This document shows, one piece after another, positions 37,405 to 44,957 of a stretch of DNA of 64,000 bases. The notes beneath the pieces are model-generated. The model searched no databases. It saw only the letters and a list, made by a program, of their open reading frames with translations, and was not told the DNA's origin. The translations under genes were made by a program, and so were the position numbers. The stretch is from Ensifer sp. LC163 (GTDB lineage Bacteria > Pseudomonadota > Alphaproteobacteria > Rhizobiales > Rhizobiaceae): assembly GCF_001695855.1 (NCBI RefSeq), contig NZ_MBSS01000001.1, positions 620,001-684,000 of the forward strand, in the 5' to 3' direction. Position 1 is the first letter of the stretch. Each line of letters begins with the position of its first letter.

Positions 37405-38628
37405 CTATCGTGCGAGGATGTCGCGCATCTCGACGATGTTGGAGCGCACCCGCAGGATATAGAAGCCCATGGTCGCCAGATGCGTCGGCATGATCCAGCC
37501 GGCCTCCTCGCCGTTGGAGATGATCAGCGGCTGGATGCGAAGTGCCGCGCGCAACTGCTTGATCGTTTCCGTCCAGATCGGCGTCAGACCGCGCTGGACA
37601 ACGACGTTGTCGAAGTCGGCGCCGGCAGCGGAGAGGATACCGTAGTAACCATAGAGCTGGCCGTAGGCGAACCAGAAACGGTCGTCGGCACGCGTATCGA
37701 ACCAACCGCCATTGTGGTTTTCCGAGCGCTCCCGAATGATCGCCGAGGTATTGCCGAGATCGTTGGCGATGCGGTCGAGGAATTCGACCAGGTTGTCCGC
37801 GCGGCCGTCAAAGATCGCCTCGCACTTGGCAAGCGAGGTGTTGAAGGTGCGCATGTCCTTCATCGCCGCGCGATAGAAGCTCGGCGTCGGGGTCTTCGGG
37901 CCAAACGGATTGAGGCCGAAGTACCAGGTCTCCTCATCAAACTGGATGTTGCCGCGCGCGCGCTGCAGATCGTTGTTGATGCCCGACGTGCCGCGAACGC
38001 GGCCGAGCGAATCGACCAGCTCCACCGAAGTACGGCGAACCGCCTGGTTGATGCCGCGCTGGAACGACGCCTTGTTGTCGAGCCAGGGCGTATCGTCCCA
38101 ATCGAGACCGAAGAAGCCGACCTTGTAAAGCAGCATCGACGAAATCCAGGCATTCTCGTTGACGTTGAAATCGATGAGGTCGGCCGCAACATCGACGATC
38201 GCCGAGGTCTGGCACTGGGTTCCGGCCGGCAATTGCACGGCGGCGAGCGCCTCAGGCGTGACTTCGGCCGGCGGGGCCGCTGCCGCTGCCTGGTTCGCGG
38301 CCGGTGCGCCGGTCGTCGTTTGGCCCGTCGTCGCACCCGGCCCGCTCACCGGAGAACCGGCCGGCGCCTTGCGCTCGGCGAGCTTGTAGCGATCGACATA
38401 GTCGGCATCGAAATTCGTCCAGGCCTGGGTCTGCCAGATGAAATAGCCATAGAAGAAGATCAGACCAAGCAGGATGATGCCGATCGGCCCCTTGATGATC
38501 CAGCTGCGCGCCCGATACCAGTTTCCAAGCGCAACGAACGGCCACAGCAGCCAGGCAACGGCCAGGCCGATGCCGCGACCGATCGCGGTAAAGACACGCT
38601 GGAAAAACGCGACGATCGGATCAAACAT
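37405..38628 (-). CDS. DUF2333 family inner-membrane protein
   Basis: A 407-residue protein. A reentrant or membrane region lies in the first 65 residues (one clear helix at about 47-65, GPIGIILLGLIFFYGYFIW). An Ala/Pro/Thr-rich linker (about 88-125) follows, then a conserved extracytoplasmic DUF2333 domain containing DLIDFNVNENAWISSMLLYK and SENHNGGWFDTRADDRFW. It is the last gene of a minus-strand run that starts with the coiled-coil gene at 44792, and begins 3 nt after DUF6638. Function unknown; it is probably the membrane anchor of that system. Confidence 0.85.
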   Translation of the reverse strand: MFDPIVAFFQRVFTAIGRGIGLAVAWLLWPFVALGNWYRARSWIIKGPIGIILLGLIFFYGYFIWQTQAWTNFDADYVDRYKLAERKAPAGSPVSGPGATTGQTTTGAPAANQAAAAAPPAEVTPEALAAVQLPAGTQCQTSAIVDVAADLIDFNVNENAWISSMLLYKVGFFGLDWDDTPWLDNKASFQRGINQAVRRTSVELVDSLGRVRGTSGINNDLQRARGNIQFDEETWYFGLNPFGPKTPTPSFYRAAMKDMRTFNTSLAKCEAIFDGRADNLVEFLDRIANDLGNTSAIIRERSENHNGGWFDTRADDRFWFAYGQLYGYYGILSAAGADFDNVVVQRGLTPIWTETIKQLRAALRIQPLIISNGEEAGWIMPTHLATMGFYILRVRSNIVEMRDILAR

Positions 38629-38631
38629 GTC

Positions 38632-39921
38632 CTATTCCTCTCTGAGGCCGTAAAGCTTGCGGCGGAAAGCCGCCTTGTCCTTGAGATATGTGCCGGTCAG
38701 TGTCGCCACAACATATTCCCTGAACTTTTCGCTGTAACGCTCATAGGCGTCATAAAATCCCTGCTTGTCGAAGACGAAGCGGGAAACGAAATCGCGGGGA
38801 ACGAGCTGGGCGATCAAGCGGTTGACCAGCCACTGATCGGGATGCGTCGGCGAGGCCCTGACCAGCATGAAGCGGTTTGCCGGCGCGACATCCTGCATCC
38901 TGATGCTGCCTGTCGTCTGCACGGTGCGCAGCATTTCCTGCAGGAAGGGATAGGCCCCGTCGCTCGCGACAAGCGCGGCATTGCGGTGCATCCAGGTCTG
39001 CAGCCAGATGCGGTCGGCACGGGCAAGATCCGTCGTCGGATCGGCGTCATTGATCAAGCCGCGTACCACCATGTCGGCACGATGCTGGTAGAGCCCGGAG
39101 TCCTCGACCCAGGACGCCTGCGGCAGCTGCAGCCGCTTCGTCGAGGCGAGAAAGTCGTAGATGCGGGCATGATCGTCGATCGCGATATAGCTGACCTGCC
39201 AGGGCCGCGATCGGCGAAACCCGGGAACCGACGGATCGCAGATAACCGTCGTCGTCTTTTCGTCGAGGAAGACATAGACACCGCCGAAATGATTGGCCCA
39301 GAAGGCATCGTGGCGGAAAACCAGCTGATCGGGCACCAGCGCGTTCTGGCGGATGTCGCCCGTCACCTTCGCCAGCTCGACCATGCGGTTCAGCATGTCA
39401 TCGTCCGTCCACGCCGTCGGCACCTTCTTCAGCCGGTCGACGAGGGCCCTGAGTTCGGCCGCCTTGCCGAGCATGTCTTCGGCCGAGAGCACCCGGAAAC
39501 GCACCTCGTTGATCGACAGCAGATCGTCGATGTCGTCGACGATGGAAACCGAATCCTCGATCTCGCCGTAGAGCGCATCCTTGATCGTCACCGCGTTGAT
39601 CGCGCGACTGTTGGCGTTGAAGAACTCGTGCATCAGCGCCGCCGTGTTGGAAAAGCTCGTATGCACGACCGGCAGTTCCGCCTGATCCGGCGTCATGATG
39701 ATGAAGCGACGGTTGACGCGGTTCGGATCGAGATAGTCGCGGTCGCCGAGCTCGTCGGCGATCTCAGGCGAGAACCCGGTCATGTCAATGCTGAAGCGCG
39801 TCAACGCCGTCGGACGCAGACCGAACCCCTGCAGCGCCTTGTTGTAGCGCGCGATCAGATGCGGTTCGGCAATGTCAAGCAGCCGTCCATAGATAAGCTC
39901 GGCTTCGAGCAGACGTTTCAT
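38632..39921 (-). CDS. DUF6638 family protein
   Basis: A 429-residue soluble protein with no signal peptide. I recognise it as the uncharacterised DUF6638 type from blocks such as DDIDDLLSINEVRFRVLSAE, FRHDAFWANHFGGVYVFLDE and VSRFVFDKQGFYDAYERYSE. No catalytic motif is evident. It is separated from DUF2333 by 3 nt and from the upstream AAA ATPase by a 654-bp gap that contains the inverted-repeat DUF559 unit, whereas other gaps in the run are short. It is probably a functional partner of the ATPase. Confidence 0.8.
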   Translation of the reverse strand: MKRLLEAELIYGRLLDIAEPHLIARYNKALQGFGLRPTALTRFSIDMTGFSPEIADELGDRDYLDPNRVNRRFIIMTPDQAELPVVHTSFSNTAALMHEFFNANSRAINAVTIKDALYGEIEDSVSIVDDIDDLLSINEVRFRVLSAEDMLGKAAELRALVDRLKKVPTAWTDDDMLNRMVELAKVTGDIRQNALVPDQLVFRHDAFWANHFGGVYVFLDEKTTTVICDPSVPGFRRSRPWQVSYIAIDDHARIYDFLASTKRLQLPQASWVEDSGLYQHRADMVVRGLINDADPTTDLARADRIWLQTWMHRNAALVASDGAYPFLQEMLRTVQTTGSIRMQDVAPANRFMLVRASPTHPDQWLVNRLIAQLVPRDFVSRFVFDKQGFYDAYERYSEKFREYVVATLTGTYLKDKAAFRRKLYGLREE

Positions 39922-39999
39922 GCCTGCACCTCCGCCGTGAAGATATCGCGAGGTTGCTCAGCGCCATCGAGCTCGTGTTGGCCCAACAGGTGTCCGCGT

Positions 40000-40040
40000 C
40001 CCCTCTCCCCGCTCGCGGGGAGAGGGCTAGGGTGAGGGGC
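40000..40040. repeat. Left 41-bp inverted repeat (REP-like hairpin)
   Basis: The hairpin CCCCTCTCCCCGC / GCGGGGAGAGGG carries a tail CTAGGGTGAGGGGC. It is the reverse complement of the right arm at 40467-40507 apart from the loop. A partial, degenerate relative is at 57088-57115. Confidence 0.8.
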
Positions 40041-40053
40041 AAATCTCCATCGC

Positions 40054-40461
40054 TCAATCATGGCTTTCGCCCGCGGGAATGAACGTCAAATCCGATGTTC
40101 TCACTTCACCTGTCAACCGCTTCTCCAGGATCGCGACGATTGTCTCCAGAACCGTCTCACACTCCTGAAGAACGTGGGTGTTCCAGAAGCGAACGACACT
40201 CCACCCGTTGGCCACCATGTACATATCGCGAATTGAATCGCTACTCCTATTCGCGTGCTGGCTTCCGTCTACTTCGACAATGAGATGATCATCCCGACAG
40301 GCGAAGTCAGCAAAATAGCGACCGATAGGAAACTGCCGCACAAACTTGTAGCCGTTGAGCCGCCGACCTCTGAGTTCTGCCCACAGCATCGCTTCTGCCT
40401 CGTTGTCCGAACGTCTTAGAAGGCGGGCACGCGCAGTCTCTTTCGTGTTCGCTCCCCTCAA
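40054..40461 (-). CDS. DUF559 (Vsr-like PD-(D/E)XK) nuclease-fold protein
   Basis: A 135-residue protein of the DUF559 family, related to Vsr mismatch endonucleases. Signature blocks are NEAEAMLWAELRGRRLNGYKF, split here as NEAEAMLW and LRGRRLNGYKF (Glu on the first helix); then FPIGRYFADFAC (Asp) and IVEVDGSQH (Glu-x-Asp), a plausible metal site of the PD-(D/E)XK fold. It is bounded tightly by 41-bp inverted repeats and lies within an unrelated operon. Reading direction is the same as the operon. Whether it cuts the flanking repeats is unknown. Confidence 0.85.
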   Translation of the reverse strand: MRGANTKETARARLLRRSDNEAEAMLWAELRGRRLNGYKFVRQFPIGRYFADFACRDDHLIVEVDGSQHANRSSDSIRDMYMVANGWSVVRFWNTHVLQECETVLETIVAILEKRLTGEVRTSDLTFIPAGESHD

Positions 40462-40466
40462 TATCG

Positions 40467-40507
40467 GCCCCTCACCCTAGCCCTCTCCCCGCAGGCGGGG
40501 AGAGGGG
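40467..40507. repeat. Right 41-bp inverted repeat (REP-like hairpin)
   Basis: The sequence GCCCCTCACCCTAG followed by CCCTCTCCCCGC / GCGGGGAGAGGGG. It is the mirror image of the left arm at 40000-40040. Confidence 0.8.
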
Positions 40508-40575
40508 ACGGCGCTGCGCCCCGCTTCCGATTTGCAGAACTGGGCGTGACAGAAGCTGATATGCATTCTGGACCA

Positions 40576-42492
40576 TCAGCCCTGCCACCGGCCGTCGCGT
40601 TTCATCGCCTCGATCTCGCGGATCGCCTTTTCGCGCTGGCGCTCGCGGCGGATGATGTCGGTGACGGCGGCATCGTCCGACTTGTCGGTGTAGCGGAATT
40701 CGCTGTCGGCGTAGCGGTTGATTTCCTGCAGCACCATCTCGATGGTGATCGGGCCGCGAAGCGCCTCGATCATCGCCTTCTTCTCGTCGTAACCCTTGTG
40801 TATGAACGAGCCGGCATCCCTGAACCAGTCGTCGGGCAATTCGACGTCCATCGCCCTCAGCTTGACTGCGTCGGTGATGTTCTTGATCGCCCGGCCGGTA
40901 AAGCGCGGCTCGGCTTCCTTGATCATGTGCAGATAGGCGCCGACATCGGCGAGCGTGGCAAGCGCCCCCTTCTCCTTCTGATAACGCTCCCAGACGGAAA
41001 CGAGGCCCTCTTCCTGCGGTCGCGAATGCGCCTCGTAGGACTGCGACACGGCGCGGTTGATCTCCTGTCCTTCGAACAACGCGTGCTCGCCGAGCGGGAT
41101 CTTATGGTTCTTGCCGACCAGCAGCGCGAAGATGTCGACATAGTCGTCTTCCGTCTGCGGCCCGTCGACCAGCCAACGGGCGCCGGCGCGCTGGCGCAGC
41201 GCATCGTCGACATTCTCAGGATAGTTGGAGAACATGCCGAAGGTGCAGTTGCCGCGCACCACCGTCGAGGCGCCGGCAAAGCTCTCCATCAGCACCGCCG
41301 TCACCTCGTGCTGGCCGGCGGACGCCCGGTCGTCGGAACGCTTGGCCGCGACCTGGTCGACGTCGTCGATGGTGCCGAAGCCGATCGCCCGCGGGTTGAC
41401 GACGTTGTTGACGAACTCCTTGCAGTTCTGGCCGGACTTGCCCTGATAGGACGAGATCTGGTCGACGCCGAAATTCTCGTAGTGGAAGGCGTAGCCGGCG
41501 ATCTCGCAATATTCGTTGAGCATGCCGGCGAGCATCTGGATCAGGATCGTCTTGCCGGTGCCCGGCATGCCGTCGCCGATGAAGGTAAAGAGGAAGCCGC
41601 CAAGCTCGACGAAGGGGTTCATCTGCCGGTCGAAGTCGTAGGCCATCAGCATCTTGGCAAGCTTCAGCGCCTGGTACTTGGCGATATGGTTGCCGATGAT
41701 CTCTTCCGGCTTCTTGAAGGTCATCACCAGCGGCTTGCGCTTCTGGCCCGGCGCGACATCGAAGCCGTTGAGCGTGAAGTCGTCCTGGTCGAGACGGATA
41801 TGCACGTTCTCGAAACTCTGCAGGCCGGTAAAGCGGCCCTTGCGCGCAATCAGCCCTTCGATGGCGACGCGCGAAAGCGCGCGCGCGCGCGCCGTCAGCG
41901 CCAGATCGTCGGCCGCCCCGGCAATGCTCCGGTCGAGTGCGGCGATCAGTCCTTTGAGCGCATCCTGCGGCGTGTCGAACAGGAAATCCGGCTCGACCGC
42001 ATCGTCCACCGGCTCGCCCTCGCCCGACAGCGTCGAGCCGAGATAGGCGGCCAGCGTGAAGGCGCAGATGTAGGCAGAGGCGTTGAGCAGCGCCTTGAAC
42101 TGGCTGGCGTCCTCACCGGCAAGCGGCGCGGTCGTATTGCGGGCCTGCAACTGTTCAAGGCTCGTCTGGCGCGCAAAGACGTCGGCCACGGCCAGCGCCA
42201 CCTGAATACCGCGGCGGGTCCTGTAGAGGACGGCGTGCTGCGCCGGCGACAGCATCGGGTCGCCCTGCCGCACCGCCTGGATGGTCTTAACAAGCTCGAC
42301 CTCGCGCGTGCGGCGTTGGCCGCCGGTCGAAACCGTCGAGACGAACCGCCGCCCGGTGCCGGCGAGCGGCGCGCCGACTGAGCCCTCGTCCCGCTCGAGG
42401 ATCACCAGCTTGGTCACCAGCCCCTGCGCGATCGCCTGGTGCTTGGCAATCTCGTCCTCGTGCAGCGTCGTCAGTCCGGTATTGAGTGTCAT
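40576..42492 (-). CDS. AAA family ATPase, unknown function
   Basis: A 638-residue protein. The first ~290 residues are helical without recognised motifs. The ATPase domain has Walker A GDGMPGTGKT (306-315), Walker B IGFGTIDDVD (370-379), sensor-like NCTFGMFSNYP and an arginine-rich DDALRQRAGARW. The C-terminal ~150 residues are highly charged. Its start lies 2 nt after the stop of the 382-residue gene upstream. DUF6638 would be next but for the inserted DUF559 unit. The ATPase presumably powers an envelope-linked or scaffold process with its operon partners; the actual role is unknown. Confidence 0.85.
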   Translation of the reverse strand: MTLNTGLTTLHEDEIAKHQAIAQGLVTKLVILERDEGSVGAPLAGTGRRFVSTVSTGGQRRTREVELVKTIQAVRQGDPMLSPAQHAVLYRTRRGIQVALAVADVFARQTSLEQLQARNTTAPLAGEDASQFKALLNASAYICAFTLAAYLGSTLSGEGEPVDDAVEPDFLFDTPQDALKGLIAALDRSIAGAADDLALTARARALSRVAIEGLIARKGRFTGLQSFENVHIRLDQDDFTLNGFDVAPGQKRKPLVMTFKKPEEIIGNHIAKYQALKLAKMLMAYDFDRQMNPFVELGGFLFTFIGDGMPGTGKTILIQMLAGMLNEYCEIAGYAFHYENFGVDQISSYQGKSGQNCKEFVNNVVNPRAIGFGTIDDVDQVAAKRSDDRASAGQHEVTAVLMESFAGASTVVRGNCTFGMFSNYPENVDDALRQRAGARWLVDGPQTEDDYVDIFALLVGKNHKIPLGEHALFEGQEINRAVSQSYEAHSRPQEEGLVSVWERYQKEKGALATLADVGAYLHMIKEAEPRFTGRAIKNITDAVKLRAMDVELPDDWFRDAGSFIHKGYDEKKAMIEALRGPITIEMVLQEINRYADSEFRYTDKSDDAAVTDIIRRERQREKAIREIEAMKRDGRWQG

Positions 42493-42494
42493 GC

Positions 42495-43643
42495 TTAAAC
42501 CTCGCTCACGACCTGGTTTCCGGAGATGACATGCACCTTGTAGTCGCCGAAGACCTGGGCCGCCTCGCCGGATGCATAGAGCGCCTGATAGGCGTCGTGC
42601 GGCACCAGCGCATGCTTCTCGTAGGACGACACGCCCATGCGCGTGGCCTCCAGATTGTCGGTGTCGATGTGGAACTCCTCCTGTGCCGGCGTCGTCGACC
42701 AGAAGCCGCGCTTTGCGGCGCGTTCGGCCTTGGAAAACACCTCCTGCACGGTCCAGGTCAGGAGCCAGGCATTTTCGGGCTTGCGCACCTTGGACAGGAT
42801 CTCGTTGATTTTCTCGTTGTTCTCGGTGATCCCGGCCGAATAGAACGGACCAAGCACGATGCGCCGCAACTGCTTGGGGTGCAGTTCGGGGAAATCCTTG
42901 TCCATGTTGGTGGCGATCGTCACCGGTGTCAGCGAATAGGTGCTGTTCTTCGAGGCGAAATCATCGAAGCGGCTGGCAAGTTCCGGATTGAGCAGGCCGC
43001 CCACCGGCAGCGGAATATCGATCTGCGGATTGAGCTTGCCATCCTCGGTGACGAGCATTTCGACGATCTTCTCGGACGAATCCTCGATTGTCGCCATGTA
43101 GACCATCGGCAGGGTCTGGGTGCCGTCGAAGGCGCCCCAGCTCACCACATAATAGGGTCGCATGGTCTTCGGGTTGACGGCGACGCGGATCGTTTCCGGC
43201 AGGATGAACGGCGAGAAGATCTCGCCCTTGCCGATCTGTTCGAGATAGAGGCGCTCGGCCATGCGCGACTGAAGCGCTTCGGGAAAAGCCTTCTGCCGCA
43301 GGATGAAATCGGCCATCTCCTCGCGCAGCGCATCGGCCGAGGGAATATCCGCAAGCCGCTTGCCCGCCGCCTGGCGGTCGTTTTCCAGTTCGAGCACGTT
43401 CTGGAAAACCGGAAAGCCGCTCTCAGCCCGGGAGATCCTGAACTGATCGACGAAGCCGATGCGGTTCTCCCAGCAGGCGATCGACGCCTTCAGCCGGGCG
43501 AGGTAGGGAACGATCACCTCGCCGACCACCGTGTTTCGATAGAGCGGCGAATTGCGGTCGCCGAGAAACAGCTCGAGCCCGGCCAGCGCCGAATGGATCG
43601 AGGTAAAATACTGCGTGACGGCAGAAGATGCTGCGACTTTCAT
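42495..43643 (-). CDS. Conserved hypothetical protein, 382 residues
   Basis: A soluble protein with no signal peptide. The N-terminal ~140 residues are helical; a mixed alpha/beta part from about 140 to 270 contains YYVVSWGAFDGTQTLPMVYM. A C-terminal block includes KPENAWLLTWTVQEVFSKAE. No catalytic motif or named family is recognised. It sits between the coiled-coil gene (60-nt gap upstream) and the AAA ATPase (2-nt gap downstream), which indicates a shared function. It has typical codon use of the window. Confidence 0.78.
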   Translation of the reverse strand: MKVAASSAVTQYFTSIHSALAGLELFLGDRNSPLYRNTVVGEVIVPYLARLKASIACWENRIGFVDQFRISRAESGFPVFQNVLELENDRQAAGKRLADIPSADALREEMADFILRQKAFPEALQSRMAERLYLEQIGKGEIFSPFILPETIRVAVNPKTMRPYYVVSWGAFDGTQTLPMVYMATIEDSSEKIVEMLVTEDGKLNPQIDIPLPVGGLLNPELASRFDDFASKNSTYSLTPVTIATNMDKDFPELHPKQLRRIVLGPFYSAGITENNEKINEILSKVRKPENAWLLTWTVQEVFSKAERAAKRGFWSTTPAQEEFHIDTDNLEATRMGVSSYEKHALVPHDAYQALYASGEAAQVFGDYKVHVISGNQVVSEV

Positions 43644-43703
43644 GCCGTTCCTCCCGGCGTGTGCCGCAAGGCAAACTCGGACCGTATCATGCCCTGGCGC
43701 CGA

Positions 43704-44792
43704 TCACTGCTGCACGTAGTTGGCGGTGTTGTGCTTGTCCATCACCGCCTGGAACCGGCGGGCAAAGGCGTCGTCAGCCAGCTTCTTGCGGCGCTGGATG
43801 TCCTGCGTCGACAGCATGTTCTTCTCGTGCATTTCAAGAAGGTCGCCGATGTGCCGCTGGGCCGCCGCGCCGATGCCGGCCATCGTCTCTTCGGCTGCCG
43901 TATCGACCTGGCTTCCGAGCGTATTGATCTTGTGGGCGACGTCCTGCTGGGCCGCCGTCTTCAACGAGTCTTCCAGTGCCTTGTAGAGCACGATGCGCTG
44001 TTCGGTATCGATCGTCAGCTTGTTGATCAGCGTGTTCTGCGCAGCGATCTGGTTGTTGAGCGAATCGACGAAGGTCTGGAACATCGAGGTGTAGCGCTCG
44101 AGCGTCTGGCTTTCGGCCAGCAGTTCCTGCTCTTTCGCCTGCTTCTCGTTGTATTCCGTCGCCAGTGCCGAGCGCTCGCCTTCAAGCTCGGTGCGCACCT
44201 TCTGCTCGGTCGACGCGGCGATGCGGTTCTCGATATCGAGCAGCAGCGGGTTCAGCTCCTCGATGCGCTTCTGCACCGCTTCGAGATTGGACATCGTGCC
44301 CTTGCGGCGCTCGATCACCTGGATCAGGCTCTGCTCGGAGGTCTTGTAGCGCTGGTCGAGGATCGACTTCTGGTCCTTGAGGATGCCGACGATGGTGTCG
44401 GATTTCGACAGCAGCTCCTGCAGGTTGCCGGCAAGCGACATGTTGCGCACCCGGTCGGTGCGCATGCGCTGCATCTTCTGCTTGGAGAAGATGCCGATGA
44501 ACTTTTCGTAGCCGGTGTAGTTCTTCATGCTCTCGAACTCGGAGCCGAAGATGTTGGTCGCATCTTCCAGTCCGATGATCAGGTCGGCGATGTTGGCCTC
44601 CATCACCTTCTGCTGGCTGATCACGTCCTGGATGCGGGCGTTCTCGATATCGAAATTGACATCGCCGAGCTTGGTCTCGGCCTTGGCGAATTGCTCCAGC
44701 ACGACGCCGGATTGCTCGAGCTTGCCGCGCATCTGCTCGACAACGCTTTTCGTCTTCTCGATTTCCGCGTCAAAATTCTGAAGAGTCGCCAT
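43704..44792 (-). CDS. Coiled-coil protein, 362 residues
   Basis: Almost entirely predicted coiled coil: long heptad-rich stretches from residue 5 to about 60 and again from about 130 to 330 (for example RKGTMSNLEAVQKRIEELNP), interrupted by a glycine-containing hinge near residues 90-105. There are no membrane helices. It loosely resembles toxic-anion-resistance (TelA-like) helical proteins, but I do not claim membership. GGGGGAT lies just before ATG 44792. It is first of the five-gene run and probably forms a filament or scaffold for the AAA ATPase. Confidence 0.8.
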   Translation of the reverse strand: MATLQNFDAEIEKTKSVVEQMRGKLEQSGVVLEQFAKAETKLGDVNFDIENARIQDVISQQKVMEANIADLIIGLEDATNIFGSEFESMKNYTGYEKFIGIFSKQKMQRMRTDRVRNMSLAGNLQELLSKSDTIVGILKDQKSILDQRYKTSEQSLIQVIERRKGTMSNLEAVQKRIEELNPLLLDIENRIAASTEQKVRTELEGERSALATEYNEKQAKEQELLAESQTLERYTSMFQTFVDSLNNQIAAQNTLINKLTIDTEQRIVLYKALEDSLKTAAQQDVAHKINTLGSQVDTAAEETMAGIGAAAQRHIGDLLEMHEKNMLSTQDIQRRKKLADDAFARRFQAVMDKHNTANYVQQ

Positions 44793-44957
44793 ATCATCCC
44801 CCTGGATCGGTTGAGGCAACAGGTGCCATCCGGGCCAAATTACTCAGCCTTCGATTGCAGTTATATAAAGGGTGTTTATCGAAAGAGAACAAGTCTCGAC
44901 CGCCGGCTTTTTTGGTCAACCGTCCCGTCGAAGTACTTGAGATATCGACGGCATTGC

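What the first reader, a model, noticed from the sequence alone, without database searches (positions are those of the whole stretch)
40000..40507. DUF559 nuclease-like gene packaged between 41-bp inverted repeats inside an operon
The sequence shows two 41-bp arms, near-perfect reverse complements, each a hairpin, with a single gene between them whose product has Asp and Glu-x-Asp metal-site residues of a Vsr-like nuclease fold. The unit separates two genes (AAA ATPase and DUF6638) that would otherwise be adjacent. No transposase is present. This recalls REP/RAYT pairs, in which a nuclease and its palindromes travel together, but with a different nuclease family. A DUF559-plus-hairpin unit acting as a self-propagating or domesticated element is, as far as I know, not well described.
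Basis: partly seen in the sequence, partly recalled or inferred. Interest (0 to 1): 0.75.

Follow-up and report, generated by a model that had tools for sequence, protein, structure and literature searches.

The report
Nuclease gene with its own triplex repeats
A small DNA-cutting enzyme gene sits between two copies of a folded DNA repeat that is scattered through many bacterial genomes, and comparison of many genomes suggests that this enzyme family is the long-missing partner that moves or maintains those repeats.

Summary
In detail: a 44-bp inverted repeat (95%) flanks one DUF559 gene between the AAA and DUF6638 genes. Each arm is a hairpin plus a purine tail that mirrors the stem: the BoxC/PIT/TM "intrastrand triplex" repeat, described as of unclear origin and without a mobility gene in the paper I read. 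This genome has 25 arms and one DUF559 gene.

The link is general. Inverted repeats straddle 88 of 130 DUF559 genes from Pseudomonadota genomes (controls 23/390 and 11/130) and 54 of 75 usable named loci, among them Chloroflexota and Planctomycetota; 7 of 11 plasmid loci, including Deinococcus and Pseudanabaena, show it too. Arms differ between loci but keep the stem-tail mirror.

Strongest evidence: in 102 Mesorhizobium genomes the same gap holds unit T (17), unit C (23) or no DUF559 (62). Arm type and DUF559 clade are never crossed (40 of 40). On a tree of the adjacent AAA gene the state changes as often as shuffled labels. Each arm is commoner elsewhere in genomes that hold the matching unit.

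Verdict: a REPIN/RAYT-like pair built on an unrelated Vsr/EDxHD-homing-type nuclease. The linkage is shown; that DUF559 cuts the repeats and drives homing and spread is inferred.

The parts
39997..40040 (+). left arm: CGTC + 26-bp palindrome (hairpin) + 14-nt purine-rich tail pointing at the gene; BoxC/PIT/TM-type repeat
   Evidence: inverted repeat I1; fold; 25 copies in the genome
40467..40510 (-). right arm, inverted copy of the left arm
   Evidence: inverted repeat I1, 95% complementary; fold
40001..40026 (.). left palindrome CCCTCTCCCCGC-TC-GCGGGGAGAGGG, also a direct repeat of the right palindrome
   Evidence: repeat family D2, 92%; a bare palindrome is what remains at this site in genus genome G012
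40481..40506 (.). right palindrome
   Evidence: repeat family D2
40027..40040 (+). tail CTAGGGTGAGGGGC, mirror of the purine strand of the stem (possible third strand)
   Evidence: sequence; mirror test over 56 different stems
40467..40480 (-). tail of the right arm
   Evidence: sequence
40054..40461 (-). DUF559 protein, 135 aa, TTG start as listed; Vsr-like nuclease fold
   Evidence: PF04480 E 2.4e-35; solved homologue 3hrl E 3.4e-25; model pLDDT 85.6; fold search
40576..42492 (-). upstream neighbour, AAA ATPase (host locus, not part of the unit)
   Evidence: PF00004 E 6.7e-11
38632..39921 (-). downstream neighbour, DUF6638 (host locus, not part of the unit)
   Evidence: PF20343 E 3.1e-75; present in 16 of 16 genomes of the genus

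Best explanation
The unit is a compact (about 0.5 kb) selfish or semi-domesticated element: one Vsr/EDxHD-type nuclease gene (DUF559) between two inverted copies of its cognate repeat, a palindrome with a mirror-symmetric purine tail that can form hairpin or intrastrand triplex DNA. Proposed working: DUF559 recognises and cuts or nicks its cognate palindrome or triplex, perhaps when it is extruded on single-stranded DNA at replication; break repair from an occupied copy then (a) spreads the whole unit into the same site of other genomes, as homing does, replacing an empty or differently occupied gap, and (b) at lower rate leaves arm pairs and single arms elsewhere, the dispersed BoxC/PIT/TM-like repeats. 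Loss by recombination between the two palindromes, which are direct repeats of each other, leaves a bare palindrome. Shown: the linkage, its generality, arm-protein matching, swaps at one site, copy-number association. Inferred: that DUF559 cuts the arms, that the three-stranded form is what is recognised, and that repair makes the new copies.
For: Straddling inverted repeats at 88 of 130 loci vs 23 of 390 swapped-flank and 11 of 130 reversed controls; 54 of 75 usable named loci vs 21 of 228, 6 of 76 and 1 of 174. Tail mirrors stem across 56 different stems: 0.805 vs 0.736 +- 0.009 for re-dealt tails, none of 500 as high; mirror beats direct reading in 30 stems, loses in 4, ties in 20 of 54. 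In Mesorhizobium 17 T units and 23 C units at one site, arm type and DUF559 clade never crossed. State on the AAA tree needs 36 changes, shuffled mean 35.3. Copies elsewhere: T arm median 5/0/1 and C arm 2/5/1 in T/C/no-DUF559 genomes, T vs C p 3.9e-4 and 2.3e-3; independent pairs for C 8.2 same way vs 0.0 other way, median p 0.008; both cross controls not significant. Bare palindromes at the site: G012 and 5 Mesorhizobium genomes. Two Deinococcus plasmids carry units at different places of one gene cluster. Fold nearest to 3hrl, then homing endonuclease I-Bth0305I and Vsr.
Against: 42 of 130 and 21 of 75 loci show no straddling repeat at the threshold; DUF559 also occurs in long proteins (ORF over 180 aa: 7 of 14 loci with arms, against 81 of 115 shorter). 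Arms persist in genomes without DUF559, e.g. G011 with 28 exact arms and 14 of 68 TM-positive Pseudomonadota genomes. For the T unit the phylogenetically independent test points the right way (4.0 vs 0.1) but is not significant (median p 0.125). No target-site duplication seen. Rhizobium and Shinella relatives at this locus keep a left arm only, and the near relatives L210, L211, L216 have no straddling repeat. Nothing shows cutting of an arm by DUF559, and the paper on the triplex repeat found no support for stable triplex in vivo.
Confidence: 0.72

Rival explanations
1. Passenger or insulator: the arms are ordinary dispersed repeats moved by some other enzyme, and DUF559 (a mismatch-repair or defence nuclease) merely sits between two of them, which may serve as terminators.
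For: The repeats occur in genomes without DUF559; a DUF559 protein of Caulobacter, VsrA, is proposed to act in mismatch repair (PMC12907096, passages).
Against: Arms straddle the gene far above controls, both arms are of one kind that differs from locus to locus, arm kind and protein clade match in 40 of 40 units, and only the matching arm is enriched genome-wide. The unit holds no other gene.
Confidence: 0.13
2. Host homologous recombination alone shuffles alleles of this gap between strains; the nuclease plays no part and the copy-number link reflects shared ancestry or shared gene flow.
For: The swaps keep one site, as allelic recombination would; the AAA tree is short and its bootstrap had not settled; the uncorrected tests ignore kinship.
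Against: The state is unclustered on the adjacent AAA gene (36 changes vs 35.3 shuffled), so any exchanged tract must be short; independent pairs for the C unit keep the link and the cross controls do not; DUF559 loci in other bacteria show the same anatomy at other sites.
Confidence: 0.12
3. Defence nuclease: DUF559 restricts foreign DNA and the hairpins regulate it.
For: A long anti-phage protein model (ProA) shares the domain weakly (E 9.1e-5, below its cut-off); one Synechocystis plasmid copy lies near a BREX methylase.
Against: No PADLOC model matches; one small gene without a partner; it does not explain dispersed cognate repeats.
Confidence: 0.03

Closest known systems
REP/REPIN repeats with RAYT (TnpA-REP)
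   Same: One nuclease gene flanked by inverted palindromes that are also dispersed as pairs and singles; genomes with the enzyme hold more repeats (for RAYT: PMC8049555, passages; here).
   Different: RAYT is an HUH tyrosine enzyme and is described there as single-copy and vertically inherited; DUF559 has a Vsr-like nuclease fold, occurs up to 10 times per genome and its unit is swapped at one site. The arms carry a mirror tail instead of a GTAG tag.
BoxC / PIT / TM_ECO intrastrand triplex repeat
   Same: Arm sequence and anatomy: 34-37 nt, stem GGGAGAGGG, loop TTA (here YTA), tail GGGTGAGGGG (Table 1 of PMC4666352). In E. coli K-12 TM no. 9 lies beside ycjD, its annotated DUF559 gene.
   Different: That paper reports no mobility gene near the motif and an unclear origin; the DUF559 link is not mentioned in it (0 occurrences of 'duf' and 'ycjd').
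EDxHD / Vsr-like homing endonuclease elements (I-Bth0305I)
   Same: Second-best fold after the solved DUF559 protein: 3r3p E 1.7e-3, TM 0.54/0.72; acidic and His motif E..D..ExD..H..D; repeated replacement of alleles at one site.
   Different: No intron or intein; the element brings its own palindromes and dispersed repeats; I-Bth0305I is a longer multi-domain protein (PMC3943268, passages).
Vsr very-short-patch repair endonuclease; Caulobacter VsrA
   Same: Fold (1vsr E 1.5e-2, TM 0.54); VsrA has a DUF559 domain and causes DNA damage in a methylase mutant.
   Different: No arms or repeats are discussed in the VsrA passages that I saw (0 occurrences of 'palindrom'); role there is mismatch repair.
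CGTC-tagged REPs
   Same: Short palindromes common in Alphaproteobacteria and said to lack a dedicated transposase (PMC3733652, abstract and passages); the window arms start with CGTC.
   Different: Those have 8-9-bp stems that almost always begin with A-T pairs and a short CCA-like tail; the window arm has an 11-bp GC stem and a 14-nt tail.

Membership tests
DUF559 (PF04480) | profile match over cut-off | tested here: met
   121.1 bits against a cut-off of 20.6
BoxC/PIT/TM repeat | hairpin with purine 3' stem plus mirror purine tail, core GGGAGAGGG-NNN-GGGTGAGGGG | tested here: met
   all 25 copies share one unit with at most 2 mismatches in the 23-nt core
BoxC/PIT/TM repeat | forms a triplex in vitro | not testable with these tools
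   reported for E. coli TM oligonucleotides (PMC4666352 abstract), not for this arm
REP-RAYT system | enzyme gene flanked by inverted palindromes that are dispersed in the genome | tested here: met
REP-RAYT system | HUH tyrosine transposase | tested here: not met
   the enzyme is DUF559 with a Vsr-like fold
REP-RAYT system | more repeats where the enzyme is present | tested here: met
   C unit significant after pairing, T unit not; uncorrected
Homing endonuclease element | homing-type nuclease fold | tested here: met
   3r3p E 1.7e-3
Homing endonuclease element | cuts the empty allele and converts it | not testable with these tools
   only the pattern of swaps at one site is seen
Vsr mismatch endonuclease | linked cytosine methylase or T:G mismatch cleavage | not tested
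   none of the six proteins scanned around the unit is a methylase; activity not testable
CGTC-REP | 8-9-bp stem starting with A-T pairs, short CCA-like tail | tested here: not met
   11-bp GC stem and 14-nt tail
DNA transposon with target-site duplication | short direct repeat at insertion boundaries | tested here: inconclusive
   no clear duplication in the gaps printed; the flanks of occupied and short gaps differ

The most novel reading that the evidence does not exclude
DUF559 proteins are the general, so far missing enzymes of a bacteria-wide class of mobile repeats that are recognised as three-stranded DNA: each DUF559 homes with, and seeds, its own stem-and-mirror-tail repeat. This would cover E. 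coli BoxC, the rhizobial and Mesorhizobium palindromes, and the Pseudanabaena and Deinococcus repeats seen here.
Probability: 0.45. Interest if true: 0.93.

Novelty: new variant of a known kind. Interest (0 to 1): 0.85.

Why it matters
Triplex-forming palindromes of the BoxC/PIT/TM type are reported from more than 260 bacterial genomes and tied to genome instability, with origin unclear (PMC4666352), and CGTC-type repeats were said to lack a dedicated transposase (PMC3733652). DUF559 is still named a protein of unknown function in Pfam. If the two belong together, a much-annotated orphan nuclease family gets a job, an orphan repeat class gets an enzyme, and the old question of how these repeats arise becomes testable with one gene in E. 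coli K-12 (ycjD) or in rhizobia. A nuclease that reads triplex DNA would be new to me; I did no search for that alone.

Tried and rejected
A mismatch-tolerant TM scan of the 130 loci (30 with a hit) was useless as a statistic: its backward control hit 25 loci because the control lies within two mismatches of the pattern; I used the pattern-free inverted-repeat test instead. L237 scored 96 only through runs of N and was removed from numerator and denominator. Mantel test of arm against protein similarity: r 0.27, 0 of 999 permutations as high, but the rank correlation is only 0.086 and just 13 cross-genome pairs exceed similarity 0.6, so I lean on Mesorhizobium instead. The loose 'T palindrome' count can also match C palindromes and is not used. 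First idea that G086 alone shows a swap (95/85 support with a long branch) was replaced by the 102-genome survey. Phages: 2 weak hits only. PADLOC: none. Rejected: a RAYT element, a CGTC-REP, a standard transposon.

Rows dropped before counting: 4 of 80 named loci for short flanks and L237; the 130 loci are 30 given automatically plus 100 that I took from the listed matches, mostly in order of E-value, not a random draw, and the list itself was capped; of 106 Mesorhizobium genomes with DUF6638, 102 were read (G399, G414, G424, G460 left out: contig edge or partial gene), and 99 entered the AAA tree. The 11 plasmid regions were my choice from 41 records. E. coli figures are 60 evenly spaced rows of 5,105 records with a match, no kinship correction.

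Full report
Observation. The window holds a 44-bp inverted repeat, 95% complementary, at 39997-40040 and 40467-40510. Between the arms lies one gene, 40054-40461 minus, a DUF559 protein (PF04480, 121.1 bits, cut-off 20.6). It separates an AAA ATPase gene from a DUF6638 gene. Each arm is CGTC, a 26-bp palindrome and a 14-nt tail pointing at the gene; alone it folds as an 11-bp hairpin with a free tail. The genome has 25 copies of the arm core with at most two mismatches, none for the backward control, all sharing one unit of about 40 bp with unrelated flanks, and one DUF559 gene.

What the arm is. A search of papers for the arm letters led to Holder et al. 2015 (PMC4666352; I saw the abstract, sections 15 and 18 and passages). 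The arm is their TM motif, earlier called BoxC or PIT: a C-rich stem, a G-rich stem and a tail that mirrors the G-rich stem, so that the strand can fold into a triplex. They list 23 copies in E. coli MG1655, found no mobility genes beside them and call the origin unclear. One of the 23, no. 9, lies about 170 bp from ycjD, which is annotated as DUF559. That neighbour is not named in the text.

The genus. Of 16 genomes, 7 carry the 138-140-aa DUF559 at this locus with both arms, 8 have a short gap, and G012 keeps one bare palindrome at the place of the unit, without tails or gene. Exact arm counts are higher with the gene than without (median 21 vs 10, 7 and 9 genomes, p 0.011, no kinship correction); G011 has 28 arms without the gene. 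G003 and G009 hold a second DUF559 of another clade whose 3' side carries an inverted pair of a different repeat; Mesorhizobium relatives of that clade (L122, L285) are straddled by the same kind of repeat.

Generality. In 349 Pseudomonadota genomes DUF559 is found in 122 and the TM core in 68; 54 of the 68 have DUF559 against 68 of the other 281 (Fisher p 4.6e-17, without kinship correction and with weak DUF559 matches counted). For 130 DUF559 loci of that survey I asked, without any motif, for the best ungapped inverted repeat between the two flanks. It scores 15 or more in 88 of 130, against 23 of 390 with swapped right flanks and 11 of 130 with the right flank reversed; 25 or more in 57 against 5 and 0. 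The outer length of the unit is 494 bp in the median (70 loci). A second, named set gives 54 of 75 usable loci against 21 of 228 and 6 of 76, and 1 of 174 random spots of the window. It includes a Dehalococcoidia MAG (L251), a Kuenenia MAG (L264) and two Desulfobacterales MAGs (L246, L250). Of 11 plasmid loci that I chose, 7 qualify, among them three Deinococcus and one Pseudanabaena (40 of 40 bases); Picosynechococcus, Synechocystis, one Sphingomonas and Thermoactinomyces do not. Two Deinococcus plasmids carry units at different joints of one gene cluster; in one of them the two genes that the other unit separates overlap by 4 bp.

Structure of the arms. Stems differ widely between loci, yet the tail mirrors the stem: third-strand matching (G on G, A or T on A) averages 0.805 over 56 different stems against 0.736 +- 0.009 when tails are re-dealt, the best of 500 re-deals being 0.768. 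In 54 stems that are not themselves mirror-symmetric, mirror reading beats direct reading in 30, loses in 4 and ties in 20 (Wilcoxon p 6e-6). A direct or inverted duplication would not make a mirror; selection for, or recognition of, a three-stranded form would. This is inference; Holder et al. saw triplex in vitro, not stably in vivo.

The natural experiment. The AAA-DUF559-DUF6638 order is also present in Sinorhizobium, Rhizobium, Shinella and Mesorhizobium, so the place is old. In Mesorhizobium I read the gap in 102 genomes: 17 have DUF559 with T arms (BoxC-type; both arms in 17), 23 have DUF559 with C arms (GGGGAGAAGG-TGCCCGAAGGGC-GGATGAGGGG type; both arms in 20), 62 have no DUF559. In the DUF559 tree the 23 C-arm proteins are one clade (100/100); of the 17 T-arm proteins 15 form one clade (100/98) and two (G401, G432) lie elsewhere; no protein of the C clade has T arms and none outside it has C arms. 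On a tree of 99 AAA gene parts the state needs 36 changes, the shuffled mean being 35.3; well-supported branches alone force at least 15 changes for C and 10 for T. Well-supported sister pairs differ, e.g. G444 C and G374 T. So gene and both arms change as a block at one site, again and again. The gaps without DUF559 hold no remnant in 30 of 62, a C palindrome with tail in 20, a bare C palindrome in 5 (G425, G386, G451, G448, G446), and in 27 a further repeat pair.

Copy number. Leaving out the copies at the site, T arms number 5, 0 and 1 in the median in T, C and no-DUF559 genomes, C arms 2, 5 and 1. T copies: T vs C p 3.9e-4, T vs none 1.0e-4, C vs none 0.38. C copies: C vs T 2.3e-3, C vs none 6.2e-5, T vs none 0.91. 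On phylogenetically independent pairs C copies follow the C unit (at least 1 copy: 8.2 pairs same way, 0.0 other way, median p 0.008); T copies point the same way but are not significant (4.0 vs 0.1, p 0.125); neither cross control is significant. In E. coli the ycjD region is found (80% of the query or more) in 3,364 of 5,426 genomes; in 60 evenly spaced rows, 39 with ycjD have a median of 3 further places like its arm, 21 without have 1 (p 2e-7, kinship not corrected).

The enzyme. Invariant residues are E23, D52, E63, D65, G66, H69, D75 among others. A homologue is solved, 3hrl of Neisseria gonorrhoeae (E 3.4e-25). The model (pLDDT 85.6) matches 3hrl, then the catalytic domain of the EDxHD homing endonuclease I-Bth0305I (E 1.7e-3), and Vsr (E 1.5e-2). 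A Caulobacter DUF559 protein, VsrA, is needed for the DNA-damage response of a methylase mutant (PMC12907096, passages), which fits an active nuclease.

Mechanism and odds. I take as shown that gene and arms form one unit, that arms and proteins are matched, and that the unit is gained, lost and swapped at one site. I infer that the nuclease acts on its own arms and that break repair gives homing at the site and, rarely, new arms elsewhere. It works like REPIN/RAYT (in E. coli RAYT-bearing genomes hold more REPINs, PMC8049555, passages), but it is not a RAYT: the enzyme is of another fold. It works like a homing element, but conversion was not tested.

Literature. DUF559 occurs in 14 papers of the library (listing; one opened for passages); combined searches with repeat, palindromic, RAYT, Vsr, COG2852, BoxC, triplex and REPIN terms listed nothing that by its title or abstract start links DUF559 to repeats. 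Subscription journals and preprints are mostly outside that library, so novelty is not proven.

Noticed in passing
L027 1251-1463 and L028 1859-2059 (genus genomes G003, G009): A second DUF559 clade with an inverted pair of another repeat (ATCTCCCCCCTTGTGGGGGAGATGCCCGGCAGGGCAGAGGGGGG) on its 3' side; the same repeat kind straddles relatives L122 and L285 in Mesorhizobium.
   Followed up: partly
Mesorhizobium AAA-DUF6638 gaps, e.g. G442, G070, G434: In 27 of the 62 gaps without DUF559 a different inverted arm pair of the CCTTCTCCCCTTGTGGGAGAAGG kind occurs, often beside a remaining right C arm: nested repeats of several kinds in one gap.
   Followed up: partly
L290 2373-3062 (S. meliloti Ak57) and L291 2338-3061: At the same locus Sinorhizobium has nested arms (outer arm, spacer, inner arm, gene, mirrored), and in Ak57 an ISRm16 element sits between the unit and the DUF6638 gene.
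   Followed up: no
L297 1319-1358 and 1905-1944 (Pseudanabaena plasmid): A 40-bp perfect inverted repeat AAGGGATCTGCCCCCTAAATCCCCCAATTCTGGGGGACTT flanks a DUF559 gene; I recall this as a common cyanobacterial repeat, not checked by a search.
   Followed up: no
C-terminal ends of several DUF559 ORFs, e.g. L100, L112, L118: The reading frame runs on into the arm, giving proline-rich tails such as SAPSPQPSP.
   Followed up: no
Own-genus pairs such as G003:C18:92227/92396, G009:C1:2826716/2826885: Pairs of arms about 170 bp apart in the opposite arrangement (tails outward) recur in several genomes of the genus.
   Followed up: no
window 37405-44819: A run of genes on the minus strand (DUF2333, DUF6638, AAA, and two proteins of 382 and 371 aa without a Pfam match at E 0.001) looks like a conserved operon of unknown function.
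   Followed up: no
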